Shown here in pieces: positions 6,796 through 63,249 of a stretch of 64,000 nucleotides of DNA. Both the position numbers and the translations under genes were made by a program. The notes under the pieces were generated by a model that was given only the letters and a program-made list of their open reading frames with translations, was not told the DNA's origin and made no database searches. Every line of letters starts with the position of its first letter. Position 1 is the stretch's first letter. Source of the DNA: Aequorivita aquimaris (GTDB lineage Bacteria > Bacteroidota > Bacteroidia > Flavobacteriales > Flavobacteriaceae); assembly GCF_001573155.1 (NCBI RefSeq), contig NZ_JRWG01000003.1:372001-436000 (forward strand). Direction: 5' to 3'.

Positions 6796-9318
6796 ATGGC
6801 TGAAGGTGATAAAATAATCCCTATTAACATTGAAGATGAAATGAAATCTGCCTACATCGATTATTCGATGTCGGTCATAGTGTCACGTGCGCTGCCAGAT
6901 GTTCGCGATGGAATGAAACCCGTTCACCGAAGAGTTTTGTTCGGAATGCACGAACTGGGCATTAGAGCTACGGGCGCACATAAAAAATCTGCGAGAATTG
7001 TGGGAGAAGTTCTCGGTAAATATCACCCGCACGGTGATACCTCGGTTTATGATGCCATGGTGCGTATGGCCCAAGAGTGGAGCTTGCGCTATTTGTTGGT
7101 TGATGGCCAAGGAAACTTTGGTTCCGTTGATGGCGATAGCCCAGCAGCAATGAGATATACAGAAGCTAGGATGCAGAAAATTTCTGAAGAAATGCTTGCT
7201 GATATTGATAAGGAAACCGTTGACCATCAATTAAATTTTGATGATACCTTAAAAGAGCCAACCGTACTTCCAACCCGCGTTCCGGGGCTTTTGATCAATG
7301 GAGCTTCAGGTATTGCAGTGGGGATGGCTACAAATATGCCGCCGCACAACCTAACCGAAGTTGTAAACGGAACGATAGCATATATTGAAAATAACGATAT
7401 TGAAATTGATGAGCTGATGCAGCACATTAAAGCTCCTGATTTTCCTACCGGTGGAATAATTTACGGATATGAAGGGGTTCGCGAAGCTTTTCACACAGGT
7501 CGCGGTCGCGTGGTAATGCGTGCCAAGGCGAGTTTTGAAGAGGTAAACGGAAGGGAGTGTATTGTGGTTTCTGAAATTCCATATCAAGTGAACAAGGCAG
7601 ATATGATTAAAAAAACTGCCGATCTAGTAAATGATAAAAAAATCGAGGGTATTTCCAATATCCGCGATGAGAGTGATAGAAAGGGTATGCGCATTGTTTA
7701 TATATTAAAGCGCGACGCAATTCCGAATATCGTTCTTAATATGCTCTTCAAGTATACTGCATTGCAATCAAGTTTCAGTGTAAACAATATTGCATTGGTG
7801 AACGGAAGGCCGCAATTATTAAACTTAAAGGAATTGATTCACTACTTTGTGGAGCACCGCCACGAGGTTGTTGTGCGTCGTACAGAGTATTTGCTTCGCA
7901 AAGCCGAAGAACGGGCGCATATTTTGGAAGGTTTAATTATTGCCTCTGATAATATTGATGAAGTAATTAGATTGATCCGCGCTTCTTCCAATGCCGATGA
8001 AGCAAGGGAGCGGTTGATGGAATCCTTCAAACTTACAGAAATTCAGGCCAAGGCTATTGTTGAAATGCGACTTCGCCAATTAACAGGTCTGGAACAGGAT
8101 AAATTGCGCAGTGAGTATGACGAACTGATGAAAACCATTGGCGACTACAAGGAGATTCTAGCCAGTAAAGAGCGTAGAATGCAAATTATCAAAGAAGAAC
8201 TCGAGGAAATTCGCGATAAATATGGCGATGAGCGCCGCTCTACAATTGAATATGCAGGAGGGGATGTAAGTATTACAGATTTGATTGCAGATGAGCAGGT
8301 GGTTTTAACTATCTCGCACGCAGGCTATATTAAGCGTACTTCCCTCTCAGAATACAAAACACAGAATAGAGGAGGGGTTGGGCAAAAGGCTTCGGCTACA
8401 CGAAATGAAGATTTCTTGGAGCATTTATTTGTAGGAACTAACCACCAATACATGCTTTTCTTTACCCAAAAAGGAAAATGTTTCTGGATGCGCGTTTTTG
8501 AAATTCCCGAAGGAACACGAACTTCAAAAGGAAGGGCTATTCAAAACCTTATAAATATTGAGCCGGATGATAAAGTGAAAGCTTTCATCTGTACTCAGGA
8601 TTTAAAAGATGAAGCGTATATAAATAGCCATTATGTAATTATGGCCACCAAAAAAGGACAGGTTAAGAAAACCCCATTGGAGCAATATTCAAGGCCAAGA
8701 ACTAACGGTATCAATGCGATAACCATTCGAGAAGACGATGAATTGCTTGAAGCAAAATTGACCACTGGAAACAGCCAAGTAATGTTAGCTGTAAAATCTG
8801 GGAAAGCCATTCGTTTTGAAGAGGAAAAAACCAGACCAATGGGTAGAAATGCCTCTGGAGTTCGTGGAATTACACTCGGCAATGAAAAGGACGAAGTTGT
8901 AGGCATGATTGCAGTAGATGATGGCGATTCTGAAATCTTGGTTGTTTCAGAAAATGGTTACGGAAAAAGATCTTCTATTGAGGATTATCGAATCACCAAC
9001 CGAGGCGGAAAAGGAGTAAAAACTATTAATATTACCGAAAAAACCGGTAAATTAGTAGCTATCAAGAATGTAACCGATGATGATGACTTAATGATTATCA
9101 ACAAATCTGGGATTGCCATTAGAATGGCCGTAGCAGATCTTCGAGTTATGGGTCGTGCCACTCAAGGGGTGCGATTGATAAAAGTTAGAGAAGATGATGC
9201 CATTGCAGCAGTAGCAAAAGCTATGAAAGACGACGATGACGATGTAGAAATCTTAGAAGAACCCAATGATGGCACCACTCTTGATAATAACGAAACTCAA
9301 ACCGAAAATAACGAATAA
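6796..9318 (+). CDS. gyrA: DNA gyrase subunit A
   Basis: The breakage-reunion subunit of type II topoisomerase, which with GyrB introduces negative supercoils. The catalytic tyrosine is Tyr121 in AMRYTEARM. The quinolone-determining region reads [10 protein letters not shown], with Thr82 where E. coli has Ser83 and Asp86 where it has Asp87; natural variation at this position is common, so nothing about drug response follows. The C-terminal domain holds beta-pinwheel repeats with a GyrA-box-like RGGKG, which argues for gyrase rather than topoisomerase IV ParC. The tail after about residue 805 is acidic (runs of Asp and Glu), a known modulator of wrapping in other GyrA proteins. At 840 residues it has typical length. 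A TPR gene follows after 10 nt. Confidence 0.95.
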
Positions 9319-9328
9319 ACTTTAACAC

Positions 9329-10591
9329 ATGAAAACACGAATTTTAATAACAGGACTGGCTTTTGTATCTGCTATTTCATTTGGACAAAAAAAAGAAATC
9401 AAAAAAGCCGAGAAAGCCGTAAAATCTAATGAGTATAGTGAAGCATTAACATATTTGGGAGAAGCAGAAGCTATGCTAGGGAGTGCAGATAATGACATGA
9501 AAGCGGAATTTTATGCCGTGAAGGGAGAAGCTCTTTTAGGCTCAGCTGGAAGTGATTTCAAGAAATTAAAGGGTGCTGCTGAAGCGTTCAGTACTTCTAT
9601 TTCCCTAAACCCAAAAATTGAGTCTGAAATAAGTGAGCAATTGCAAAACTTAAGAGCCACACTAATCAATAGCGCAATAAAAGACCAAAATGCGCAACAA
9701 TATAAAATGGCAACTGATAAATTGTATACCAGTTATATGGTTACAAAGAAAGATACTTCTGATTTATATTTTGCAGCCGGAAATGCTGTGAATGGTCAGG
9801 ATTATGATACCGCTATTAAATACTACCAAATGCTATTGGATCTTGGCTATACGGGCGCTACAAAAGAGTTTGTAGCTACAAGTAAAGAAACAGGTCAAGT
9901 AGAAGCTTTTGAAAATGAGAACATTCGAAACATTGCAGTAAAGTCTGGTGAATTTATTAAACCTGAATCTCGTGTTACCGAATCCAGAAAAGGAGAAATA
10001 CTTCGCAATATGACACTTATTTATATTGAAAGAGGTGATACCGAAAAAGCAAAAGCATTAATTAAAACTGCAAGAGCAGAAAACCCTGATGATGTTTTCC
10101 TTATGAGAGCTGATGCTGATATGAGTTATAAAATGGGCGATAATGCAAGATATAACGAATTGATGGAAAAAATTGTAGCTTCTGATCCTGAAAATCCTGA
10201 GCTTTATTTTAACCTAGGTATTAGCAACGACCAATTGGGCAACCAAGAAAAAGCTTTGGAATATTACAATAAGGCATTAGAGCTGAGACCCGATTATGAG
10301 GCAGCGTTAATTAATCTTGCTGCTTTGAAGCTATCTGGAGAAGATAAAATTGTTGAGGAAATGAATAGCTTAGGAAATTCTGCCGCAGACAATAAAAGAT
10401 ACGATGAGCTTAAAAAACAACGCGAGCAATCATACAAAGAGGCGTTGCCATATTTAGAGAAGGCCAGAGCAATCAATCCTTCCAACCAAAATGTACTTAA
10501 ATATTTAATGAATATTTATAGTCAGATTGGGGAAGATGCAAAATACAAAGAAACTAAGGCCAAACTTGAAGCATTGGAAGCTCAAGGATAA
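9329..10591 (+). CDS. Exported TPR-repeat protein
   Basis: A 420-residue protein with a signal peptide (ILITGLAFVSAISFGQ) and mostly helical content. Clear tetratricopeptide repeats occur, for example PELYFNLGISNDQLGNQEKALEYYNKALEL near residues 287-316 (seen in pieces) and another at the C-terminus. TPR arrays serve as protein-docking scaffolds; the mature protein is expected in the periplasm. It starts 10 nt after the gyrA stop and ends at a strong terminator, so it probably shares the gyrA transcript, an arrangement I recall as frequent in Flavobacteriia. No enzymatic domain is visible and the partner is unknown. Confidence 0.8.
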   Translation: MKTRILITGLAFVSAISFGQKKEIKKAEKAVKSNEYSEALTYLGEAEAMLGSADNDMKAEFYAVKGEALLGSAGSDFKKLKGAAEAFSTSISLNPKIESEISEQLQNLRATLINSAIKDQNAQQYKMATDKLYTSYMVTKKDTSDLYFAAGNAVNGQDYDTAIKYYQMLLDLGYTGATKEFVATSKETGQVEAFENENIRNIAVKSGEFIKPESRVTESRKGEILRNMTLIYIERGDTEKAKALIKTARAENPDDVFLMRADADMSYKMGDNARYNELMEKIVASDPENPELYFNLGISNDQLGNQEKALEYYNKALELRPDYEAALINLAALKLSGEDKIVEEMNSLGNSAADNKRYDELKKQREQSYKEALPYLEKARAINPSNQNVLKYLMNIYSQIGEDAKYKETKAKLEALEAQG

Positions 10592-10612
10592 AAGCTTCAT
10601 AACTATATAATC

Positions 10613-10640
10613 AAAAACCCCTGAAATATCAGGGGTTTTT
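10613..10640. terminator. Bidirectional intrinsic terminator
   Basis: An A-tract, an inverted repeat (cccctga / tcagggg) and a T-tract lie between two convergent genes, the TPR gene on plus and the NlpC/P60 gene on minus. The A and T tracts on either side let it serve both strands. Confidence 0.85.
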
Positions 10641-10644
10641 CTTT

Positions 10645-11394
10645 TTATATAATTCTTTTTATTACTCTAAGTTTGTGGGTGTGGTTGCGCATTTCATAGT
10701 TGAAAATACCACTATGATCCAATCTATCAATGCGTACTTTTCCGTGGGCGTGGATAATGTAGTTATCCTTCATAATAATTCCTACATGGGTAATTTTCCC
10801 TTCGTCATTATCAAAAAATGCCAAATCGCCCGGCTCACTTTCCTCAATAAAACTCAAAGCTTCTCCTTGGGTTGCCTGCTGGCTTGCATCGCGGAGCAAT
10901 TTATAGCCATTAAGTTTATAGACCATTTGCGTAAAACCACTGCAATCAATACCAAAAGGCGTTTTGCCGCCCCATAGATATGGGGTATTTAAATAGAGTA
11001 GAGCAGTTTCGACCAAATGTTCCTTCGGATGTTTTGCCGAAACTGATTTTCCTTCGAAATGATGTTTTAAATAAGCAGCTGCGGAAATATTACTTCCCAA
11101 ACAAATGGAAAACAACTGATTATCCGGCGCGGTAACAAAATCTACCAAATCTGATGAAAGCCCCACCGGTTTCTTTTCAAAATCGGAATAATCTTCTTCG
11201 GCTATATTAAAAAATTGCTTGTTGTCTATCCAACCTTCATATTTGTCAAAAGCCAAGCGGATTCGACTCCACTTTTTACGGGTTTCCAATATTTTGAAAT
11301 GTTCGCCGTAAAGTACTTGCGTCACCATTTCACTCGCATCGGAAGCTTCGGCTCGAAGTGGGACCACACTTAAATTACAGATACCGTAATCCAT
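10645..11394 (-). CDS. NlpC/P60 (C40) peptidase with SH3-like domain
   Basis: A 249-residue protein: an N-terminal SH3-like region (about 1-60, with KWSRIRLAFDKYEGWI) then a C40 papain-fold peptidase. The catalytic Cys is in FGIDCSGF (about residue 150) and the His in ITHVGII (about 200), followed by a polar HAHG segment. Family members cleave the gamma-D-Glu to diamino-acid bond in peptidoglycan stem peptides. No signal peptide is visible: the N-terminus is MDYGICNLSVVPLR. It may therefore act in the cytosol on recycled muropeptides, as YkfC-type enzymes do; this is inference. It lies 32 nt after the thiolase gene on the same strand, so the two are probably co-transcribed. Confidence 0.85.
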   Translation of the reverse strand: MDYGICNLSVVPLRAEASDASEMVTQVLYGEHFKILETRKKWSRIRLAFDKYEGWIDNKQFFNIAEEDYSDFEKKPVGLSSDLVDFVTAPDNQLFSICLGSNISAAAYLKHHFEGKSVSAKHPKEHLVETALLYLNTPYLWGGKTPFGIDCSGFTQMVYKLNGYKLLRDASQQATQGEALSFIEESEPGDLAFFDNDEGKITHVGIIMKDNYIIHAHGKVRIDRLDHSGIFNYEMRNHTHKLRVIKRII

Positions 11395-11426
11395 TCAGAA
11401 TTTATTGAAGATAGTTACGGTTTTTT

Positions 11427-12605
11427 TTAGATTCTTTCAATTACCATTGCAGAAGCGCCACCGCCGCCATTGCAGATAGCTGCTGCACCAATTTTGGCAT
11501 CATTTTGCTTAAGCACATTCAAAAGCGTAATCAAGATACGGACGCCACTACAACCCAGCGGATGACCAAGAGATACGGCGCCACCGTTAACATTCACATT
11601 GCTATCGTTTAATCCTAAAATTTTCATATTCGCTAATCCCACAACTGCGAATGCTTCATTAAATTCAAAATAATCTACATCTTTAATATCAATCCCTGCT
11701 TTTGCAATCGCTTTTGGAAGTGCTTTTGCGGGAGCGGTGGTAAACCATTTTGGTTCCTGTGCGGCATCTGCGTAACTTTTAATAAAAGCCAGAGGAGTTA
11801 AACCTAATTCTTTCGCTTTGACCTCACTCATCAAAATCATTGCGCCAGCACCGTCATTAATGGTAGATGCGTTTGCGGCAGTAACGGTTCCGTCTTTTGA
11901 AAATGCAGGCCGTAAAGAAGCAATCTTGTCCATCTTTACGTTTTTGAATTCTTCATCCTCGGAAACAACTACCGATTCGCCACGACGCTGAGGCACTTCC
12001 ACAGAAACAACTTCATTCTTAAATTTTCCTTCGGCCCAAGCTTTTGCGGAGCGTTCGTACGATTTGATGGCGAAAGCATCCTGATCTTCCCGAGAGAAAT
12101 TATATTCGGTAGCACATAGATCTGCACAGGTTCCCATTGCGTTGTGGTCGTAAGCATCTACCAAACCGTCTTTTTGCATTCCGTCAATCAAAGTAGCGGG
12201 GCCAAATTTTGTTCCACTGCGCATATGTACATAATGAGGTATATTGCTCATACTTTCCATTCCGCCGGCCACTATTACATCGGCATCACCAAGTGCGATG
12301 GCTTGTGCGGCTTGCATTACAGCTTTCATTCCCGATGCACATACTTTATTAACTGTGGTTGCAGGTACAGTATCTGGAATTCCGGCACCCAAAGCAGCTT
12401 GGCGCGCTGGGGCTTGACCCACACCCGCCTGAACCACATTGCCCATATATACTTCCTGAACGGCAGAAGGATCAAGATTTATTTTATTCAATGCGCCTTT
12501 AATGGCCGCTGAACCCAATTGGGTTGCGGTTAATGAAGATAGGCTTCCCATAAAACTTCCTATTGGTGTTCTGGCTGCAGATACTATAACTACTTTATTG
12601 TTCAT
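11427..12605 (-). CDS. Acetyl-CoA C-acetyltransferase (thiolase)
   Basis: Thiolase of 392 residues that condenses or cleaves acyl-CoA, forming acetoacetyl-CoA from two acetyl-CoA in the biosynthetic direction. The nucleophile is Cys89 in VCASGMKAV. The second signature GHPLGCSG carries the catalytic His near residue 348, and CNGGGGA near the C-terminus carries the second catalytic Cys. Length and the lack of an extended N-terminus fit the tetrameric thiolase II type (AtoB/PhaA-like). No partner beta-oxidation genes adjoin. It has its own well-formed promoter and is followed by the C40 peptidase gene. Substrate chain length cannot be told from sequence. Confidence 0.92.
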   Translation of the reverse strand: MNNKVVIVSAARTPIGSFMGSLSSLTATQLGSAAIKGALNKINLDPSAVQEVYMGNVVQAGVGQAPARQAALGAGIPDTVPATTVNKVCASGMKAVMQAAQAIALGDADVIVAGGMESMSNIPHYVHMRSGTKFGPATLIDGMQKDGLVDAYDHNAMGTCADLCATEYNFSREDQDAFAIKSYERSAKAWAEGKFKNEVVSVEVPQRRGESVVVSEDEEFKNVKMDKIASLRPAFSKDGTVTAANASTINDGAGAMILMSEVKAKELGLTPLAFIKSYADAAQEPKWFTTAPAKALPKAIAKAGIDIKDVDYFEFNEAFAVVGLANMKILGLNDSNVNVNGGAVSLGHPLGCSGVRILITLLNVLKQNDAKIGAAAICNGGGGASAMVIERI

Positions 12606-56339: not shown

Positions 56340-56819
56340 ATGAAAAAATTCCTCATTCTGGCTATAATTGCAGCCACAACATTCGCTTGCGGTACACCGA
56401 AGACCGTTCAAGAATCACGAAAAGTAATCAAAGGGTATTGGTCTTTGGACAATATAACCTATGACTCTTCAGGAACCTTTAATGTAACTTTATTCAATGA
56501 TACATCAGTAGAATGTATGGAAGGAAGTTCTTGGAGGTTTATACCAAACAATAATACGGGTAATTACAATATAGATAACTCTAATTGCCCAACTGGTGAA
56601 CGCAATTTCATCTTTACTATTCAGGAAATAGACCCTACATCGGGCTTGTATGATTTCCTATTAAAACCAACCAATGCCAAAGGCAAATCAGAAACAAATG
56701 CTGGTTATAGATTACGTTTGGCCCAACTAAATGATTCGTCTATGCGTTGGGAGCAAACTGTAAGTTTGGATGGTAAGCCATTTAAAATAAATATGAACTT
56801 TTCTAAAATTCAAGATTAA
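56340..56819 (+). CDS. Lipocalin-like lipoprotein
   Basis: A 159-residue lipoprotein: a signal with lipobox (LAIIAATTFACG, Cys at about residue 17), then a compact beta-rich domain beginning KGYWSLDNITYDSSG, the pattern of Bacteroidota lipocalin-like domains. The ligand is unknown. It lies 36 nt after the DUF1328 gene and 5 nt before the OmpA-like gene, so it is very likely co-transcribed with the latter and probably acts at the outer membrane. Confidence 0.78.
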   Translation: MKKFLILAIIAATTFACGTPKTVQESRKVIKGYWSLDNITYDSSGTFNVTLFNDTSVECMEGSSWRFIPNNNTGNYNIDNSNCPTGERNFIFTIQEIDPTSGLYDFLLKPTNAKGKSETNAGYRLRLAQLNDSSMRWEQTVSLDGKPFKINMNFSKIQD

Positions 56820-56824
56820 AAATT

Positions 56825-57532
56825 ATGAAGACATTTTTTAAACAAACCGCATTAATTGCTTTAGCTTTTACATTTGTTATCAGTTTAGCAAGTTGTGAAG
56901 CTACCAGAAATGCCAATAACAAACAGAAAGGTGCCGTAATTGGTGCAACTGGAGGAGCAATTCTTGGTGCAATAATAGGAAATAACGTTGGAAAAGGTGG
57001 AAACGGAGAACTTGGCGCTGTAATTGGTGGTGTTGTTGGTGGTGGTGCCGGAGTACTTATTGGTGCCAAAATGGACAAACAAGCCCAAAAAATTGAGCAA
57101 GAAATTCCCGGTGCCCAAGTAGAAAGAGTTGACGACGGTATAGTTGTTACTTTTGACGAAAATAGTGGTGTTTATTTTGATACTGCCAAGTATAATATAA
57201 ATTCCGCATCACAGGCTACACTGGACAAGTTATCAAACATTCTTAAGGAATACCCAGATACTAATGTGTTGGTTGTGGGGCATACCGACAGCGTAGGTGC
57301 TGACGAAATGAATATGACCCTTTCAAAAAATAGAGCACAGGCCGTTACTAATTATTTTACACAAAATAAAGGATTAAGTCCTTCAAGATTTACCACAAAT
57401 TGGTATGGTGAAACAGCTCCTGTTGCAGATAATTCAACTGCAGAAGGTCGCGCAAAAAACCGTCGTGTTAACCTTGCTATCGTTCCAAACGAAAAAATGA
57501 AGCAAGACGCACAAAATCAGGCAGGAGAATAA
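56825..57532 (+). CDS. OmpA-family lipoprotein with glycine-zipper domain
   Basis: A 235-residue lipoprotein. The signal ends near SLASCEA (Cys at about residue 24), a glycine-rich zipper follows (IGATGGAILGAIIGN, then GAVIGGVVGGGAGVLIG, about 39-80), and the OmpA C-like domain is at about 105-225, with VVGHTDSVG and the later NRRVNL peptidoglycan-binding signature. It should tether the outer membrane to peptidoglycan from the inner face. It follows the lipocalin-like gene by 5 nt and ends at an intrinsic terminator. Confidence 0.9.
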   Translation: MKTFFKQTALIALAFTFVISLASCEATRNANNKQKGAVIGATGGAILGAIIGNNVGKGGNGELGAVIGGVVGGGAGVLIGAKMDKQAQKIEQEIPGAQVERVDDGIVVTFDENSGVYFDTAKYNINSASQATLDKLSNILKEYPDTNVLVVGHTDSVGADEMNMTLSKNRAQAVTNYFTQNKGLSPSRFTTNWYGETAPVADNSTAEGRAKNRRVNLAIVPNEKMKQDAQNQAGE

Positions 57533-57551: not shown

Positions 57552-57585
57552 AAATCCCGCACCATTTTTGGGCGGGATTTTTTTA
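57552..57585 (+). terminator. Intrinsic terminator after the OmpA-like gene
   Basis: aaatcccgc and gcgggattt form a 9-bp stem with an 11-nt loop and a T-run, 19 nt after the OmpA-like stop and just before the polyketide operon. It separates the operon from upstream transcription. Confidence 0.75.
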
Positions 57586-57598
57586 GTTTTAAAACAAA

Positions 57599-58726
57599 AT
57601 GATACACAAATACAAATGGAACGTTATTGTAATTGGAGGAGGGCTTGCAGGCCTTACCACAGCCTTGCATCTTGCTTCAAATAATTTTTCAGTTTGTTTG
57701 GTTGAAAGAAGCGAATATCCCAAGCACAAAGTGTGTGGTGAATATGTTAGTAACGAAGTATTGCCCTATTTAAAATCCCTCAGAATTGATCCATTTACAG
57801 TAGGAGCAAAGCAGATTTCCAAATTCAAAATAACTGATACGAACGGAGACCCCATAACAGCCACCTTACCGCTCGGTGGCTTTGGAATTAGCCGTTATAC
57901 GTTTGACAGTTTGCTTTTTGAGGCTTTAAAAAATAAAGCTGAAATAATTTTTGACACTGTTGAAAAAATAATTTTTGAAGAAAATCAATTTCGTGTTACT
58001 ACTCAAAACAAATCAGTACTACTGGCAGATTTTGTCGTGGGCGCTTTCGGGAAAAGATCAAATATTGATACTTTTCTAAAGCGAAAATTTATGCAGGAAA
58101 GTTCGCCTTGGCTAGGCGTAAAGGCTCATTACGATTATGATTTTCCCGATGATACTGTTGCCCTACACAACTTTAACGGAGGCTATTGTGGTTTGAGCAA
58201 AACTGAAACGGGAACTGTAAATGCTTGTTATTTGGCAACGTTTAAGTCATTTAAAAAATATGGCGATATTGAGGCTTTTCAAAAACAGGAACTTTCAAAA
58301 AATCCTTTTTTGGATAAATTTTTCAGTGGGGCAAAACCCCTTTTCGAAAGACCATTGACCATTAGCCAAATATCCTTTCAAGAAAAAAAACCTGTGGAAA
58401 ATCATATATTTATGGTGGGCGACAGCGCAGGACTTATACATCCACTTTGCGGCAACGGGATGGCAATGGCTATTAAGAGTGCACAGTTTTTTTCAGAAAT
58501 GCTTATCCAACTATTTCAAAAAGGAGAATTTGATAGAACGGCCATGGAACGGCAATATGCAAGTCAATGGCATAATGAATTTGATGAAAGAATAAAGACC
58601 GGAAAGTTTATTCAGCGAATTTTATTGAATCCATATTTAGCGAAGGCGGGTTTCGCAATGGTAAAAACATTTCCATCCCTAGTTCCAAAACTCATTCAAA
58701 AAACACACGGCAATCCAACCGAATGA
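57599..58726 (+). CDS. FAD-dependent oxidoreductase (geranylgeranyl-reductase-like)
   Basis: A 375-residue flavoprotein of the PHBH-like/geranylgeranyl-reductase superfamily. The dinucleotide fold GGGLAG is at residues 13-18, a CGEYVSNEVL segment follows, and the FAD-contacting GDSAGLIHPLCGNG is near residue 278. Relatives hydroxylate aromatic substrates or reduce isoprenoid chains. As the first gene of the polyketide operon, with an ATGA overlap to the methyltransferase gene, it is best read as a tailoring enzyme that oxidises or reduces the product, comparable in role to SrsC of Streptomyces griseus (analogy, not homology shown). Substrate unproven. Confidence 0.86.
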   Translation: MIHKYKWNVIVIGGGLAGLTTALHLASNNFSVCLVERSEYPKHKVCGEYVSNEVLPYLKSLRIDPFTVGAKQISKFKITDTNGDPITATLPLGGFGISRYTFDSLLFEALKNKAEIIFDTVEKIIFEENQFRVTTQNKSVLLADFVVGAFGKRSNIDTFLKRKFMQESSPWLGVKAHYDYDFPDDTVALHNFNGGYCGLSKTETGTVNACYLATFKSFKKYGDIEAFQKQELSKNPFLDKFFSGAKPLFERPLTISQISFQEKKPVENHIFMVGDSAGLIHPLCGNGMAMAIKSAQFFSEMLIQLFQKGEFDRTAMERQYASQWHNEFDERIKTGKFIQRILLNPYLAKAGFAMVKTFPSLVPKLIQKTHGNPTE

Positions 58727-59442
58727 TAACCTTCAGCAATAAATATAGATCTGCCCAAACAGAAATAATGGACGACTTGGATTTTCAAGGAGTTGAAATG
58801 AAAAATTTATTGAAAGATCTAAAAGTTGTCAACAAATGGCTGGGCGGGAACACGATTACAATTGATGGAATAAATAAATTGCTACAAGACCACTCCAAGG
58901 CTGAGAAGGTAACAATTTTAGATATTGGTTGTGGCGATGGTGAATTGCTTCGGAAATGCGCCGATTTTGGAAATCAAAATAATTTCAATTTTAATTGTAT
59001 TGGCTTGGATTTTAACGAAAATATTCTAACCTATGCAAAAGAGAGTAGTACAAGTTATCCAAATATAAAATTTCGAAAAGTTGATGTTTTTTTGGAAGAA
59101 AATTTAATTCCAAATTGCGATATTGCAGTATGCACTTTGTTTTTGCACCATTTCAATAATAAAGAGATTGAAGGCCTTTTGAAAAAACTTATGCATAAAA
59201 TAACCATTGGAGCAGTAATAAACGATCTGCACCGAAATAATCAAGCTTTCAACCTTTTTAAATTGGTAAGTACCCTGTTTTTAAAAACTAAAACGGCAAA
59301 ACATGATGGATTGGTTTCCATCGCAAGAGGTTTCAAAAAGGATGAATTAGAAAAAATATCAAGACAAATCCCAAATCAAAAGAGTAAAATTCAATGGCGC
59401 TGGGCCTTCCGCTATCAATGGATACTCAAAAAGGAACTATGA
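58723..59442 (+). CDS. SAM-dependent methyltransferase, polyketide tailoring
   Basis: A 239-residue class I methyltransferase. Motif I is ILDIGCGDG (about residues 65-73), followed by a conserved FNFNCIGLDFNENIL acidic segment and a hydrophobic C-terminal half. It starts with an ATGA overlap on the FAD gene and ends with another on the type III PKS gene, so all three are translationally linked. The family recurs beside type III PKS genes in other phyla, which supports O- or C-methylation of the polyketide product (inference). Confidence 0.85.
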   Translation: MITFSNKYRSAQTEIMDDLDFQGVEMKNLLKDLKVVNKWLGGNTITIDGINKLLQDHSKAEKVTILDIGCGDGELLRKCADFGNQNNFNFNCIGLDFNENILTYAKESSTSYPNIKFRKVDVFLEENLIPNCDIAVCTLFLHHFNNKEIEGLLKKLMHKITIGAVINDLHRNNQAFNLFKLVSTLFLKTKTAKHDGLVSIARGFKKDELEKISRQIPNQKSKIQWRWAFRYQWILKKEL

Positions 59443-60491
59443 GCGTAAAGATAACCACCGTGGCAAAACAACTGCCGCAATACAGCAGAAAAACTGAAGA
59501 AGTAATTCCTTTTGTAAAACAATGGATGCACGGACAGGAAAACCGTTTTCAACGAAAAGTCATTAAGATATTTGAAGGCGCTGGGGTAGATAAGCGTTAT
59601 TCAATCATGGATCCCGTGGAGGTATTTACCAATACAAGTTTTGAGGAACGCAATGATATTTACGTGCGCGAAATAACAAAACTTGGCAAACAATGCCTGC
59701 AAAATGCATTCGACAAAGCTAACTGGAGGCCTACGGACATCGATTTCATAATAACCGTAAGTTGCACGGGAATTATGATTCCATCCGTAGATGCCTATTT
59801 AATTAATGAGCTGAAAATGCGGCAGGATGTTGTACGGCTTCCCGTAACTGAAATGGGCTGTGCCGCAGGTATTTCGGGAATAATTTATGCAAACAACTTT
59901 TTAAAGGCCAATCCCGGCAAGCGCGCTGCGGTTATAGCTTTGGAAGCGCCCACTGCAACCTTTCAACTAGAGGATTTTTCAATGGTGAACATTGTCAGCG
60001 CCGCCATTTTTGGCGACGGGGCAGCCTGTGTTCTAATGTCATCAAATCAAGAGGACAGTGGTCCTGAAGTTTTAGCCGAGGAAATGTACCATTTTTATGA
60101 TGCTACAGACATGATGGGCTTTAAACTAGTAAACACAGGCCTTCAAATGATACTCGATAAATCTGTTCCCGAAAAAATAGCGGAACATTTCCCAAATATT
60201 GTACATCCATTTTTGAAAAAGAATAATTTGAAAATAGAAGACATCGATCATCTTATATTTCACCCCGGCGGAAGAAAAATAGTGGAAACGGTAGAGGATT
60301 TATTCGGAAGTCTCGGCAAAAACATTGAAGATACCAAAGAAGTACTTAAATTGTACGGTAATATGAGCAGTGCAACCGTGTTATATGTTTTGGAGCGTTT
60401 TATGGATAAAAAACACAAAAAGGGCGATTTGGGCCTGATGCTCAGTTTTGGCCCCGGGTTTTCGGCGCAACGTGTATTGTTGAAATTTTAA
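59439..60491 (+). CDS. Type III polyketide synthase
   Basis: A chalcone-synthase-superfamily ketosynthase of 350 residues. The catalytic triad is complete: Cys141 in EMGCAAGISG, His275 in IFHPGGRK and Asn308 in YGNMSSAT. It extends an acyl starter with malonyl-CoA and cyclises it; alkylresorcinol and alkylpyrone synthases share this plan. The ATG at 59439 is preferred because it forms the ATGA overlap with the upstream stop; ATGs at 59394 and 59418 lie earlier in the previous gene. Starter specificity cannot be read from sequence. Neighbours suggest an ACP-bound starter. Confidence 0.94.
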   Translation: MSVKITTVAKQLPQYSRKTEEVIPFVKQWMHGQENRFQRKVIKIFEGAGVDKRYSIMDPVEVFTNTSFEERNDIYVREITKLGKQCLQNAFDKANWRPTDIDFIITVSCTGIMIPSVDAYLINELKMRQDVVRLPVTEMGCAAGISGIIYANNFLKANPGKRAAVIALEAPTATFQLEDFSMVNIVSAAIFGDGAACVLMSSNQEDSGPEVLAEEMYHFYDATDMMGFKLVNTGLQMILDKSVPEKIAEHFPNIVHPFLKKNNLKIEDIDHLIFHPGGRKIVETVEDLFGSLGKNIEDTKEVLKLYGNMSSATVLYVLERFMDKKHKKGDLGLMLSFGPGFSAQRVLLKF

Positions 60492-60493
60492 TT

Positions 60494-61267
60494 ATGGGCG
60501 AATTTAAAAATCAATGGGCATTGATACTTGGAGGCAGTAGCGGTTTGGGTCTTGCCACCGCAAAAAAACTCGCTTCCGAAGGAATGAATATCTGTATTGT
60601 CCATCGCGATCGAAAAAGTAATTTGAAAAAATTTGAAGCGGAAGTAAAGCAGATGCAATCTTCTGGAATTACTGTAAAAACGTTCAATAAAGATGCCCTA
60701 AAAGAAGAAGTAAGAGAAGAAATTATTAAAGATCTTCCCAAACACAGTGTCAAGATTTTACTCCACAGCATAGCAAAGGGCAGTTTAAAAACGATGAATG
60801 CTTCCAAAGAAACTATGCTTACAAAACAGGATTTCGATATAACCATTCACGCTATGGCAACAAGCTGGTATGAATGGACCCAAACATTGATTGAGCATCA
60901 AGGCTTTGCCAATGGAGCACGAAATATTGCTTTTACCAGTGAAGGAAACTCAAGGGTTTGGCCAGGTTATGCTGCAGTTTCCGCAGCCAAGTCAGTTTTG
61001 GAGGCTTTGATGCGAAATATGGCCGTAGAATTGGCTCCTTTAAAAATTACAACTAATTGCGTGCAGGCCGGAACTACTGAAACCCCTTCCTTTTTGGCAA
61101 TTCCGGGAAGTGAAAAATTGATTGAAATGGCGAAACTCCGAAATCCCCAAAATAGGCTTACAAAACCCGAAGACGTAGCAAATTCGGTCTATCTGCTCTG
61201 CAAAAAAGAAGCCGATTGGATCAATGGCACAATACTAAAGGTGGATGGAGGCGAAAGTTTGAGATAA
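60494..61267 (+). CDS. FabL/FabI-like enoyl-ACP reductase (SDR)
   Basis: A 257-residue SDR-fold protein. The NAD(P)-binding GGSSGLG is at residues 13-19, and the active-site pair is Tyr159-x6-Lys166 in YAAVSAAK. That spacing is the enoyl-reductase (FabI/FabL) type, whereas ketoreductases such as FabG use Tyr-x3-Lys. A FabL-like EALMRNMAVELAP follows. It would therefore reduce enoyl-ACP in the mini-FAS, not beta-ketoacyl-ACP. It starts 2 nt after the PKS stop. Activity is inferred. Confidence 0.84.
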   Translation: MGEFKNQWALILGGSSGLGLATAKKLASEGMNICIVHRDRKSNLKKFEAEVKQMQSSGITVKTFNKDALKEEVREEIIKDLPKHSVKILLHSIAKGSLKTMNASKETMLTKQDFDITIHAMATSWYEWTQTLIEHQGFANGARNIAFTSEGNSRVWPGYAAVSAAKSVLEALMRNMAVELAPLKITTNCVQAGTTETPSFLAIPGSEKLIEMAKLRNPQNRLTKPEDVANSVYLLCKKEADWINGTILKVDGGESLR

Positions 61268-61274
61268 ATATAAA

Positions 61275-61721
61275 ATGGATTATCAATATATTATAGACCA
61301 GCTTCCATATTCCGAACCTTTTTTGTTTGTGGATGAGGTGCTTTCGGTTTCGGAAGATAATATTTCAGGTACCTATACTTTTAAAAAGGATTTAACTTTT
61401 TACGAGGGCCACTTTAAAGACAATCCGGTTACACCCGGGGTAATACTTACAGAATGTATGGCACAGATTGGTCTGGTGTGTTTTGGTATTTATCTTTTAA
61501 AGGATGAAACTTCTTCGGAAAAAATAAATTTGGCATTGAGCAGTACCGAAATTGATTTCTATTGTCCTGTTTTTCCGGGAGAAAAAGTAAAGGTTGTCTC
61601 AGTAAAAGAATATTTTAGGTTCAATAAATTGAAATGTAAAGTAAAAATGATGAACGCTAAAGACGAAATAATTGCAAAAGGCACAATAAGTGGAATGATC
61701 GTGAATAGATATTTAAAATGA
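61275..61721 (+). CDS. FabZ-like 3-hydroxyacyl-ACP dehydratase
   Basis: A 148-residue hotdog-fold protein with the dehydratase residues His46 in EGHFKDNPVTPGV and Glu60 in LTECMAQ, the FabZ/FabA dyad. It removes water from 3-hydroxyacyl-ACP. The length and N-terminus fit single-domain FabZ. It lies 7 nt after the enoyl reductase gene and overlaps the ketosynthase gene by ATGA, so it belongs to the same operon and probably the same chain-building cycle. Confidence 0.88.
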   Translation: MDYQYIIDQLPYSEPFLFVDEVLSVSEDNISGTYTFKKDLTFYEGHFKDNPVTPGVILTECMAQIGLVCFGIYLLKDETSSEKINLALSSTEIDFYCPVFPGEKVKVVSVKEYFRFNKLKCKVKMMNAKDEIIAKGTISGMIVNRYLK

Positions 61722-62989
61722 AAAAGCGTGTTGTAATTACGGGACTTGGAGTTGTTTCGCCAAATGGTGTTGGTATTTCAGCTTTTTCCGAAGCCATAAA
61801 AAAGGGCGTTTCGGGTATTGAGTTCTTGGCCGAATTGCGTGATTTGAAATTTTCTTGCCAATTGGGCGCAGCGCCGAAAATTTCCGAAGAAAAAAAACGG
61901 GAATACCTTTCAGACCTTCAACTTCGTAATTTCAACAGCAGTGGTATTTTATACGGGGTAATTGCAGGAATGGATGCTTTGAAAGATGCAAAAATTGAGC
62001 CCGCGAAACCCGAAGAGGCACCACTTTGGGACTTGGGAATTATTTTCGGCACCGGTATAAGCGGCGTGGATAAATTTCGCGAGGCCATTCATAAAATAGA
62101 CGATAAAAACGTACGTAGATTGGGCAGTACTTCGGTAGCACAAACCATGACGAGTGGTGTGAGCGCCTATCTTGGCGGATTAATTGGTGCTGGAAATATG
62201 GTAACTGCCAACTCTTCTGCCTGTGCTACGGGAACAGAGGCCCTTTTAATGGGCTATGAGCATATTGCCGCAGGAAAGGCAAAATATATGCTTTGCGGCA
62301 GTAGCAGCGACTCCGGACCTTATATTTGGGGCGGCTTTGATGCCATGAAAGTTACGACCTATAAATACAACGATACGCCAAATAAAGTTGCTGGCCCAAT
62401 GAGTGAAGATGCGAGCGGTTTTGTACCTGGCAGTGGGGCAGGGGCGTATTTGCTGGAATCCTTGGAGAGCGCACAACAAAGAGGCGCAACCATTTATGCG
62501 GAAATCCTTGGCGGCGCTATAAATAATGGCGGACAAAGAGACGGCGGCAGTATGACTGCCCCAAATAGTGCTGCTGTACAAAAATGTATTTCTGAAGCGC
62601 TCAAAAACGCTAACGTTAGCGCTGCTGAAATAGATTACATCAACGGACATTTAACCGCAACCATCAAAGATCCCGATGAAATAGAAAACTGGAGTATTGC
62701 ATTGAACAGAAAGGGAAATCAGTTTCCGTTTATAAATTCATTGAAAGGAATGGTCGGTCATTGTTTGGCAGCAAGCGGAAGTATAGAAATTGTTTCTGCA
62801 ATTCTTCAACTACACGAAGGGTTCATTTTTCCCAATGTAAATTGTGAAAATTTGCATCCAAAAATAGCTTCTTTGATTTCTTCGGAAAAAATTTCGATGA
62901 AAACACAAAAAACATCGTTACAAACCATTGCTAAGGCCAGCTTTGGTTTTGGTGATGTAAACGCATGTGCTATCTTTAAAAAAATTTAA
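61718..62989 (+). CDS. KAS II-like beta-ketoacyl-ACP synthase
   Basis: A 423-residue thiolase-fold ketosynthase. Catalytic residues are visible: Cys169 in NSSACATG, His311 in INGHLTAT, Lys343 and His348 in LKGMVGH. The HxT motif reads GHLTAT, whereas FabF has AHGTST, a variant seen in specialised KAS proteins of Bacteroidota, such as those of aryl-polyene and similar loci. It starts with an ATGA overlap on the dehydratase gene and is followed 5 nt later by the ACP gene, so it forms a dedicated elongation pair. Confidence 0.91.
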   Translation: MKKRVVITGLGVVSPNGVGISAFSEAIKKGVSGIEFLAELRDLKFSCQLGAAPKISEEKKREYLSDLQLRNFNSSGILYGVIAGMDALKDAKIEPAKPEEAPLWDLGIIFGTGISGVDKFREAIHKIDDKNVRRLGSTSVAQTMTSGVSAYLGGLIGAGNMVTANSSACATGTEALLMGYEHIAAGKAKYMLCGSSSDSGPYIWGGFDAMKVTTYKYNDTPNKVAGPMSEDASGFVPGSGAGAYLLESLESAQQRGATIYAEILGGAINNGGQRDGGSMTAPNSAAVQKCISEALKNANVSAAEIDYINGHLTATIKDPDEIENWSIALNRKGNQFPFINSLKGMVGHCLAASGSIEIVSAILQLHEGFIFPNVNCENLHPKIASLISSEKISMKTQKTSLQTIAKASFGFGDVNACAIFKKI

Positions 62990-62994
62990 AGCAC

Positions 62995-63249
62995 ATGACT
63001 TCGGAAGAAATATACACAAAGCTTGAGCCTATCATCAAGACTTATTTGCCCGAGGATGTATCTGCCAAAGAAATAAGTCGCAAGAGTGATCTCACGCGCG
63101 AACTAAATATAAATTCTGCCCATTTGGTCGATATAATTTTGGACATAGAAGATGTTTTCAATATTGAGTTTAAAAATGAGGATATGGAACAGCTTCGGAA
63201 TGTGGATGATGCTATTTTGCTCATTAAGCAAAAAACTTTAGCTATATAA
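62995..63249 (+). CDS. Dedicated acyl carrier protein
   Basis: An 84-residue acidic helical protein of ACP type. The phosphopantetheine Ser is Ser41 in LNINSAHLVDII; the usual DSL reads NSA here, an unusual variant. A later helix (IEDVFNIEF) fits the second ACP helix. It is the last gene of the polyketide operon, 5 nt after the ketosynthase gene. The altered motif may bear on recognition by the phosphopantetheinyl transferase or on partner choice. Confidence 0.9.
   Translation: MTSEEIYTKLEPIIKTYLPEDVSAKEISRKSDLTRELNINSAHLVDIILDIEDVFNIEFKNEDMEQLRNVDDAILLIKQKTLAI

What the first reader, a model, noticed from the sequence alone, without database searches (positions are those of the whole stretch)
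57599..63249. Seven-gene type III PKS operon with its own mini fatty-acid synthase
Seen: FAD oxidoreductase, methyltransferase, type III PKS, FabL-like enoyl reductase, FabZ-like dehydratase, KAS-like ketosynthase and ACP are contiguous on one strand; three junctions are ATGA overlaps and the rest are gaps of 2-7 nt. Known: type III PKS can take acyl starters from a dedicated FAS (ArsABCD of Azotobacter) and can be joined by methyltransferase and flavoenzyme (SrsABC of Streptomyces griseus). Inference: this operon combines both designs to make a methylated, oxidised phenolic or quinone-like lipid, probably for membrane or oxidative-stress use.
Basis: partly seen in the sequence, partly recalled or inferred. 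Interest (0 to 1): 0.78.

Follow-up and report, generated by a model that had tools for sequence, protein, structure and literature searches.

The report
Type III PKS operon with acyl-supply cassette
A conserved gene set in marine and soil flavobacteria appears to build its own fatty chain on a dedicated carrier protein and hand it to an enzyme that turns it into a methylated, oxidised phenolic or quinone lipid; the product has not been measured, but the chain-building part is a reusable module found beside other lipid-making enzymes too.

Summary
In detail: seven contiguous genes (57599-63249, + strand, Aequorivita, Flavobacteriaceae), three ATGA overlaps, gaps of 2-7 nt. Families are as stated and catalytic residues intact. 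The set is co-inherited: T3PKS and KAS share 72 genomes (74 and 73 carriers among 398). T3PKS-MT-FAD alone occurs across Bacteroidota; the flavobacterial clade adds dehydratase-KAS-ACP. Three corrections. (1) The 'mini-FAS' is not autonomous: no ketoreductase or malonyl transferase, and the FabL-like reductase is missing from most Flavobacterium. (2) The operon's fullest form ends in a dedicated phosphopantetheinyl transferase (67/115 loci; absent in Aequorivita). (3) The SrsABC likeness is functional only: methyltransferase family and PKS lineage differ. New: related reductase-dehydratase-KAS-ACP(-PPTase) cassettes occur without this PKS, beside darB/darH, a GNAT protein or a sugar acyltransferase, so the cassette is separable. 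Best explanation: the cassette plus housekeeping FabG/FabD builds acyl-ACP; the T3PKS adds malonyl units and probably forms a resorcinol (Phe228 at the ArsB-Trp281 site); MT and FAD enzyme give a methylated hydroquinone/quinone lipid. Product and role are inferred. New variant of a known kind.

The parts
57599..58726 (+). Gene A: FAD-dependent oxidoreductase, 375 aa (halogenase/monooxygenase/geranylgeranyl-reductase superfamily; predicted ring hydroxylase)
   Evidence: Pfam FAD_binding_3 and related; nearest solved relatives FADH2-dependent halogenases; model pLDDT 90, fold like PltA, ChlB4, 3-hydroxybenzoate 6-hydroxylase; no WxWxIP motif in 115 homologues
58723..59442 (+). Gene B: class I SAM methyltransferase, 239 aa
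   Evidence: Pfam Methyltransf_25/31; best NCBIfam PRK06202, below cut-off; fold search gives small-molecule O- and C-methyltransferases
59439..60491 (+). Gene C: type III polyketide synthase, 350 aa; Cys141-His275-Asn308, Phe228 at the ArsB Trp281 column
   Evidence: Pfam PF02797/PF00195 above cut-off; catalytic columns invariant in 113-114 of 114 homologues; PKS11 and THNS are the nearest solved structures
60494..61267 (+). Gene D: SDR, FabL-like enoyl reductase type, 257 aa, Tyr159-x6-Lys166
   Evidence: Best match FabL model (146.6 bits, cut-off 328) and FabL structure 3oic; present in about 52 of 115 loci
61275..61721 (+). Gene E: FabZ-like dehydratase, 148 aa, His46/Glu60
   Evidence: Pfam FabA-like domain; FabZ models best but below cut-off; conserved columns
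61718..62989 (+). Gene F: beta-ketoacyl-ACP synthase, 423 aa, Cys169/His311/Lys343/His348
   Evidence: Pfam ketoacyl-synt N and C; FabF 263.6 bits, cut-off 493.75; own clade apart from the genome's other KASs
62995..63249 (+). Gene G: acyl carrier protein, 84 aa, Ser41 in an INSA motif in place of DSL
   Evidence: NCBIfam ACP models (46.6 bits, below cut-off); Ser invariant, motif INSA in 105 and INSS in 3 of 108
57556..57590 (+). GC-rich hairpin followed by a T-run just before the operon, read by eye as a likely terminator of the upstream OmpA gene
   Evidence: Sequence CCCGCACCATTTTTGGGCGGGATTTTTTT; not listed by the scan, whose loop limit is 8 nt

Best explanation
The operon makes a methylated, oxidised long-chain phenolic lipid. 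The cassette D-E-F-G (reductase, dehydratase, KAS, own ACP), borrowing ketoreductase FabG and malonyl transferase FabD from housekeeping metabolism, builds or extends an acyl chain on its own ACP. The T3PKS takes that chain as starter, adds malonyl units and most likely closes a resorcinol ring by aldol condensation; the class I MT methylates it and the FAD enzyme hydroxylates it to a hydroquinone that oxidises to a quinone. Shown here: gene content, intact catalytic residues, co-inheritance, absence of KR/FabD from the operon, a dedicated PPTase in most relatives, and occurrence of the cassette beside other acyl-using enzymes. Inferred: direction of transfer, chain length, ring type, methyl position, oxidation, and physiological role (a membrane redox lipid like the polyketide quinones is the best guess, not shown).
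For: Six genes co-inherited. Catalytic residues intact. Dedicated PPTase after the ACP in 67/115 loci. The cassette occurs without the PKS beside darB/darH (L216, L217), a GNAT protein (L218-L220) and a sugar acyltransferase (L213), as expected of an acyl-ACP supplier. FabG and FabD are available in trans. Aromatic residue at the cyclisation-steering column in 114/114 (role of the column from PMC6274091). T3PKS+MT+oxidoreductase operons give methylated alkylresorcinols and quinones elsewhere (PMC10896814, PMC9927152).
Against: No metabolite evidence. KR and malonyl transferase are not in the operon. The reductase is missing from most Flavobacterium, so chain saturation is uncertain. PKS11, a pyrone synthase, also has an aromatic residue (Trp) at the steering column, so ring type is not decided. 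The nearest NCBIfam model of the PKS is DpgA, a malonyl-primed enzyme, though far below cut-off. The FAD enzyme's reaction cannot be told from fold.
Confidence: 0.55

Rival explanations
1. The cassette makes an unsaturated or polyene chain, so the product is an alkenyl or polyenyl phenol, pigment-like, comparable in logic to aryl polyenes and flexirubin.
For: Dehydratase and KAS are kept while the enoyl reductase is lost from most Flavobacterium; related cassettes sit beside darB/darH of the dialkylresorcinol family.
Against: Aequorivita and many genera keep the Y-x6-K reductase; a housekeeping reductase could replace it; the KAS is not in the clade of the genome's other KASs (long branches).
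Confidence: 0.18
2. The T3PKS is malonyl-primed and makes a small aromatic (DpgA- or THNS-like) that is methylated and oxidised; the cassette's acyl chain is attached separately or the PKS product itself is loaded on the ACP.
For: Best NCBIfam model is DpgA (174.7 bits); THNS is among the nearest structures; in the tree THNS falls on the same side as this clade, on a long branch.
Against: Score far below the DpgA cut-off of 425; Tyr of THNS is Phe here at the corresponding column; no acyltransferase in the operon to join two halves.
Confidence: 0.12
3. Same supply logic, but the T3PKS closes an alpha-pyrone and the tailoring acts on it, giving alkylpyrones.
For: PKS11 (alkylpyrone synthase) is the nearest solved structure; many T3PKSs make both.
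Against: Invariant Phe at the ArsB-Trp281 column favours a resorcinol by analogy; MT plus flavin oxygenase is the set that accompanies resorcinol-quinones (PMC9927152).
Confidence: 0.11
4. The PKS-MT-FAD set and the cassette are two pathways that merely share a transcript.
For: The halves are separable: cassette without PKS in L213 and L216-L220; PKS-MT-FAD alone in other Bacteroidota; in G352 they lie on two contigs (L160, L215).
Against: 72 of 75 carrier genomes keep both, including the genome where they are split.
Confidence: 0.04

Closest known systems
SrsABC (Streptomyces griseus) and polyketide-quinone operons pkqABC (Mycobacterium, Streptomyces; PMC9927152)
   Same: T3PKS, methyltransferase and flavin-type oxygenase in one operon; predicted alkylresorcinol-to-quinone logic
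   Different: SrsB is an ICMT-type methyltransferase (PMC6669644), here a class I SAM MT; gene order FAD-MT-PKS; no acyl cassette, ACP or PPTase in srs/pkq; different PKS lineage inferred from the Bacteroidota tree (srs sequence itself not compared)
ArsABCD (Azotobacter vinelandii)
   Same: Dedicated fatty-acid machinery beside a T3PKS, acyl handed over from ACP (PMC6274091)
   Different: Ars uses type I multidomain FAS and two PKSs (ArsB, ArsC); here discrete type II proteins and one PKS, plus MT and FAD enzyme
Hierridin operon hidABC (picocyanobacteria) and planctomycetal T3PKS operons (PMC10896814, PMC8086630)
   Same: MT + oxidoreductase + T3PKS operon giving methylated alkylresorcinols
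   Different: Three genes, order MT-oxidoreductase-PKS, no KAS/dehydratase/ACP
Cylindrocyclophane pathway (CylB ACP, CylI T3PKS)
   Same: Free-standing ACP and dedicated chain assembly feeding a T3PKS to a resorcinol (PMC8086630)
   Different: Chain extended by type I PKSs and halogenated; no dehydratase/KAS cassette of this kind
Dialkylresorcinol/flexirubin (darAB) loci of Bacteroidota
   Same: In L216 and L217 a related cassette lies beside darB/darH
   Different: No DarB in the window's operon; ring is made by a T3PKS

Membership tests
Type III polyketide synthase | Chalcone/stilbene synthase domains and Cys-His-Asn triad | tested here: met
   PF02797 76 bits, PF00195 70 bits, cut-offs 27; Cys141, His275, Asn308 invariant
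Alkylresorcinol synthase | Bulky aromatic residue at the ArsB Trp281 column | tested here: inconclusive
   Phe228 in 114/114, but PKS11, a pyrone synthase, has Trp there; column equivalence to ArsB inferred from motif spacing (ArsC Met293 = window Met237), ArsB itself was not aligned
Autonomous type II fatty acid synthase | KAS, KR, dehydratase, enoyl reductase, ACP and malonyl transferase all in the set | tested here: not met
   No KR or malonyl transferase in the operon; FabG and FabD found elsewhere
FabL-type enoyl reductase | Tyr-x6-Lys and FabL model | tested here: inconclusive
   Y-x6-K conserved; FabL is best model but 146.6 bits against cut-off 328
SrsABC / pkqABC | T3PKS + MT + flavin oxidoreductase in one operon | tested here: met
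SrsABC | Isoprenylcysteine carboxyl methyltransferase-type SrsB | tested here: not met
   Gene B matches class I MT families only; SrsB family from PMC6669644
ArsABCD | Type I FAS proteins and two T3PKSs | tested here: not met
   Only discrete proteins and one T3PKS in the genome over the PF02797 cut-off
Hierridin (hidABC) | PKS within the HidC clade | not tested
   No HidC sequence at hand; order differs (PMC10896814)
Flavin-dependent halogenase | WxWxIP motif | tested here: not met
   0 of 115 homologues
Dialkylresorcinol (Dar) pathway | DarB ketosynthase | tested here: not met
   Window PKS 26.9 bits, cut-off 550
Any of the above | Chemical product | not testable with these tools
   Needs lipid mass spectrometry

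The most novel reading that the evidence does not exclude
The SDR-dehydratase-KAS-ACP-PPTase set is an unrecognised, portable acyl-ACP supply cassette of Bacteroidota that has been plugged into at least four pathways: a T3PKS phenolic-lipid operon (a stable, widespread pairing in Flavobacteriales, with a distinct T3PKS lineage in place of the PKS of the three-gene PKS-MT-FAD cluster), dialkylresorcinol genes, a GNAT acyltransferase locus, and an exopolysaccharide acylation locus.
Probability: 0.5. Interest if true: 0.7.

Novelty: new variant of a known kind. Interest (0 to 1): 0.55.

Why it matters
T3PKS clusters make up about 9-11% of predicted clusters in Flavobacteriaceae (PMC7440613, PMC10734526), and I found no paper in the searchable library that assigns a product to this one. 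A conserved operon with its own carrier protein and, in most relatives, its own PPTase points to one shared kind of lipid across this group, directly testable in genetically tractable Flavobacterium. If it is a quinone, it would extend polyketide-quinone chemistry from Actinobacteria to Bacteroidota. The portable cassette would also help to read other orphan lipid loci in the phylum.

Tried and rejected
A TTG...TANNTTTG promoter pattern was rejected by the tool; sigma-70 style scans were at chance level, so no promoter is claimed. Halogenase function for gene A rejected for lack of WxWxIP. DpgA assignment of the PKS rejected: 174.7 bits against cut-off 425. Ketoreductase function for gene D rejected: no Tyr four residues before the Lys, Y-x6-K instead, and only 92 bits on the FabG model. 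Origin of the KAS from the genome's own flexirubin-type or housekeeping KASs not supported: they fall outside its clade (their branches are long). Literature searches for a characterised Bacteroidota T3PKS product of this type gave none in the open-access library; subscription papers are not covered. The fold of the MT did not separate O- from C-methylation. One fetched region was wasted by a wrong coordinate (L197).

Full report
What is there. The window lies in an Aequorivita genome (window = G000:C3:372001-436000; a named Aequorivita MAG is 99% identical in the PKS). The seven genes at 57599-63249 are as described. The only correction to the gene models is the PKS start, 59439 (ATGA overlap with the MT stop), not the mechanical ORF start 59394. 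Pfam and NCBIfam confirm the families, but no protein of the operon reaches the cut-off of a specific NCBIfam model, so each is a divergent member of its superfamily.

Catalytic integrity. Over about 50 to 115 orthologues each, the PKS keeps Cys141-His275-Asn308; the KAS keeps Cys169, His311, Lys343 and His348; the dehydratase keeps His46 and Glu60; the SDR keeps Tyr159-x6-Lys166, the spacing of FabI/FabL enoyl reductases rather than of ketoreductases (family knowledge); the ACP keeps Ser41, but in an INSA or INSS motif instead of DSL. All enzymes therefore look active. A ketoreductase and a malonyl transferase are absent from the operon and present elsewhere in the genome (FabG on C11, 339 bits; FabD on C4, 331 bits).

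Co-inheritance. In 398 genomes of the order, the PKS is in 74, the KAS in 73, both in 72; the two PKS-only genomes are incomplete assemblies (G091 66% complete, G350 80% and in about 530 contigs), and the one KAS-only genome is discussed below. The FAD gene is found in all 74 PKS genomes. In 115 loci the order A-B-C-(D)-E-F-G is kept with few exceptions. The seventh, the SDR, is in about 52 of 115 loci; in most Flavobacterium the dehydratase follows the PKS directly (median gap 22 nt).

A missing eighth gene. In 67 of 115 loci a further gene lies just after the ACP (median gap -1 nt). It matches the 4'-phosphopantetheinyl transferase superfamily (PF01648). Nine loci from several lineages have both SDR and PPTase, so the fullest form is the eight-gene A-B-C-D-E-F-G-X; the simplest reading is that Aequorivita lost X and most Flavobacterium lost D. 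The Aequorivita genome has a single PPTase-family hit elsewhere, on C10, and nothing close to X. A dedicated PPTase strongly suggests that the ACP works as a carrier in this pathway.

The three-gene core also exists alone. Elsewhere in Bacteroidota, T3PKS, MT and FAD genes occur in PKS-MT-FAD order with no cassette (L142, L144, L147, L149, L201-L203, L207-L209, L214). Their FAD proteins are 31-42% identical to the window's, but their PKSs only 26-31%. In a tree the cassette-linked PKSs are one clade (100/100) on a long stem (1.48), parted by supported branches from the PKSs of the three-gene sets, while the stem of the cassette-linked FAD proteins is only 0.23. I infer that the tailoring pair was kept and the PKS was exchanged, or changed rapidly, when the cassette was joined; rapid change cannot be excluded. 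At the column that I match to ArsB Trp281, which steers resorcinol against pyrone formation (PMC6274091), all 114 cassette-linked PKSs have Phe and all 33 other sampled Bacteroidota T3PKSs have Trp. The match rests on motif spacing (ArsC Gly284 and Met293 are nine residues apart, as are Phe228 and Met237 here), not on an alignment with ArsB itself.

The cassette is a separable module. Searching for the KAS gave six loci outside the PKS clade's operons. L213: G-D-E-F-X with no PKS, MT or FAD gene, inside what looks like an exopolysaccharide cluster and followed by a hexapeptide-repeat transferase. L216 and L217: D-E-F-G-X divergent from a run with darB (635 and 615 bits; cut-off 550) and darH (454 and 443; cut-off 300). 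L218-L220: E-F-G, with D in L220, beside a GNAT-family protein; L220 also has a PLP-dependent acyltransferase of the BioF/serine-palmitoyltransferase type about 4 kb away. These KASs and the operon KASs form one 100/100 group apart from the genome's own KASs (the outside branches are long). In each setting the neighbour is of a type that uses an acyl thioester, which is the best evidence here that the cassette supplies acyl-ACP.

Mechanism. Shown: composition, integrity, co-inheritance, occurrence of the cassette elsewhere. Inferred: acyl-ACP made by D-E-F-G with housekeeping FabG and FabD; transfer to the PKS, for which ArsA to ArsB/ArsC transfer in Azotobacter is the precedent (PMC6274091); aldol closure to a resorcinol; methylation by B; hydroxylation by A and oxidation to a quinone, for which SrsABC and PkqABC are the precedents (PMC9927152, PMC6669644). 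The FAD enzyme folds like PltA and ChlB4 halogenases and 3-hydroxybenzoate 6-hydroxylase, lacks the halogenase motif, and has an aromatic residue where aromatic-ring hydroxylases usually have the Asp of the DG motif (read from the alignment), so its reaction is the least certain step.

Relation to known systems. It is not of the ars type (no type I FAS, one T3PKS in the genome) and differs from srs in methyltransferase family and gene order. T3PKS clusters are counted in Flavobacteriaceae surveys (PMC7440613, PMC10734526; also reported for Aequorivita aurantiaca, PMC10608841), and the passages I read assign no product to this one. I call it a new variant of a known kind.

Limits.

Noticed in passing
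67 of 115 loci, e.g. L057 at +3115..+3606 from the PKS start: A dedicated 4'-phosphopantetheinyl transferase follows the ACP gene in most relatives but not in Aequorivita.
   Followed up: yes
L213 (G373:C1:344000-363900), 7903-11854: The cassette in the order ACP-SDR-dehydratase-KAS-PPTase without the PKS/MT/FAD genes, inside an apparent exopolysaccharide cluster and followed by a hexapeptide-repeat transferase.
   Followed up: partly
L216 (8276-11786) and L217 (8655-12206): A related SDR-dehydratase-KAS-ACP-PPTase set divergent from genes that include darB and darH of the dialkylresorcinol family.
   Followed up: partly
L218, L219, L220: Dehydratase-KAS-ACP (with SDR in L220) next to a GNAT-family protein; L220 also has a serine-palmitoyltransferase-like gene. 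Possibly a sphingolipid-type locus.
   Followed up: partly
L160 and L215 (genome G352): The operon is split: FAD-MT-PKS-SDR on one contig, dehydratase-KAS-ACP on another, the latter still beside the neighbours (nitroreductase, Hpf-like, TerC-like) seen downstream in Aequorivita (L190).
   Followed up: partly
L164 (genome G360), near 9069-10000: The T3PKS reading frame is broken into two frames while the neighbouring genes look intact: a recent loss or a sequencing error.
   Followed up: no
window 56340-57532: A small lipoprotein-like gene (159 aa) and a YiaD-type OmpA lipoprotein (NF053611, 227.8 bits over cut-off 175) lie just upstream on the same strand and are kept upstream of the operon in 32-33 of 115 loci from several genera.
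   Followed up: partly
L130-L140, L210: T3PKS genes of about 30-37% identity with no MT or FAD neighbour of these families form a separate group near PKS11 in the tree; their context was not studied.
   Followed up: no
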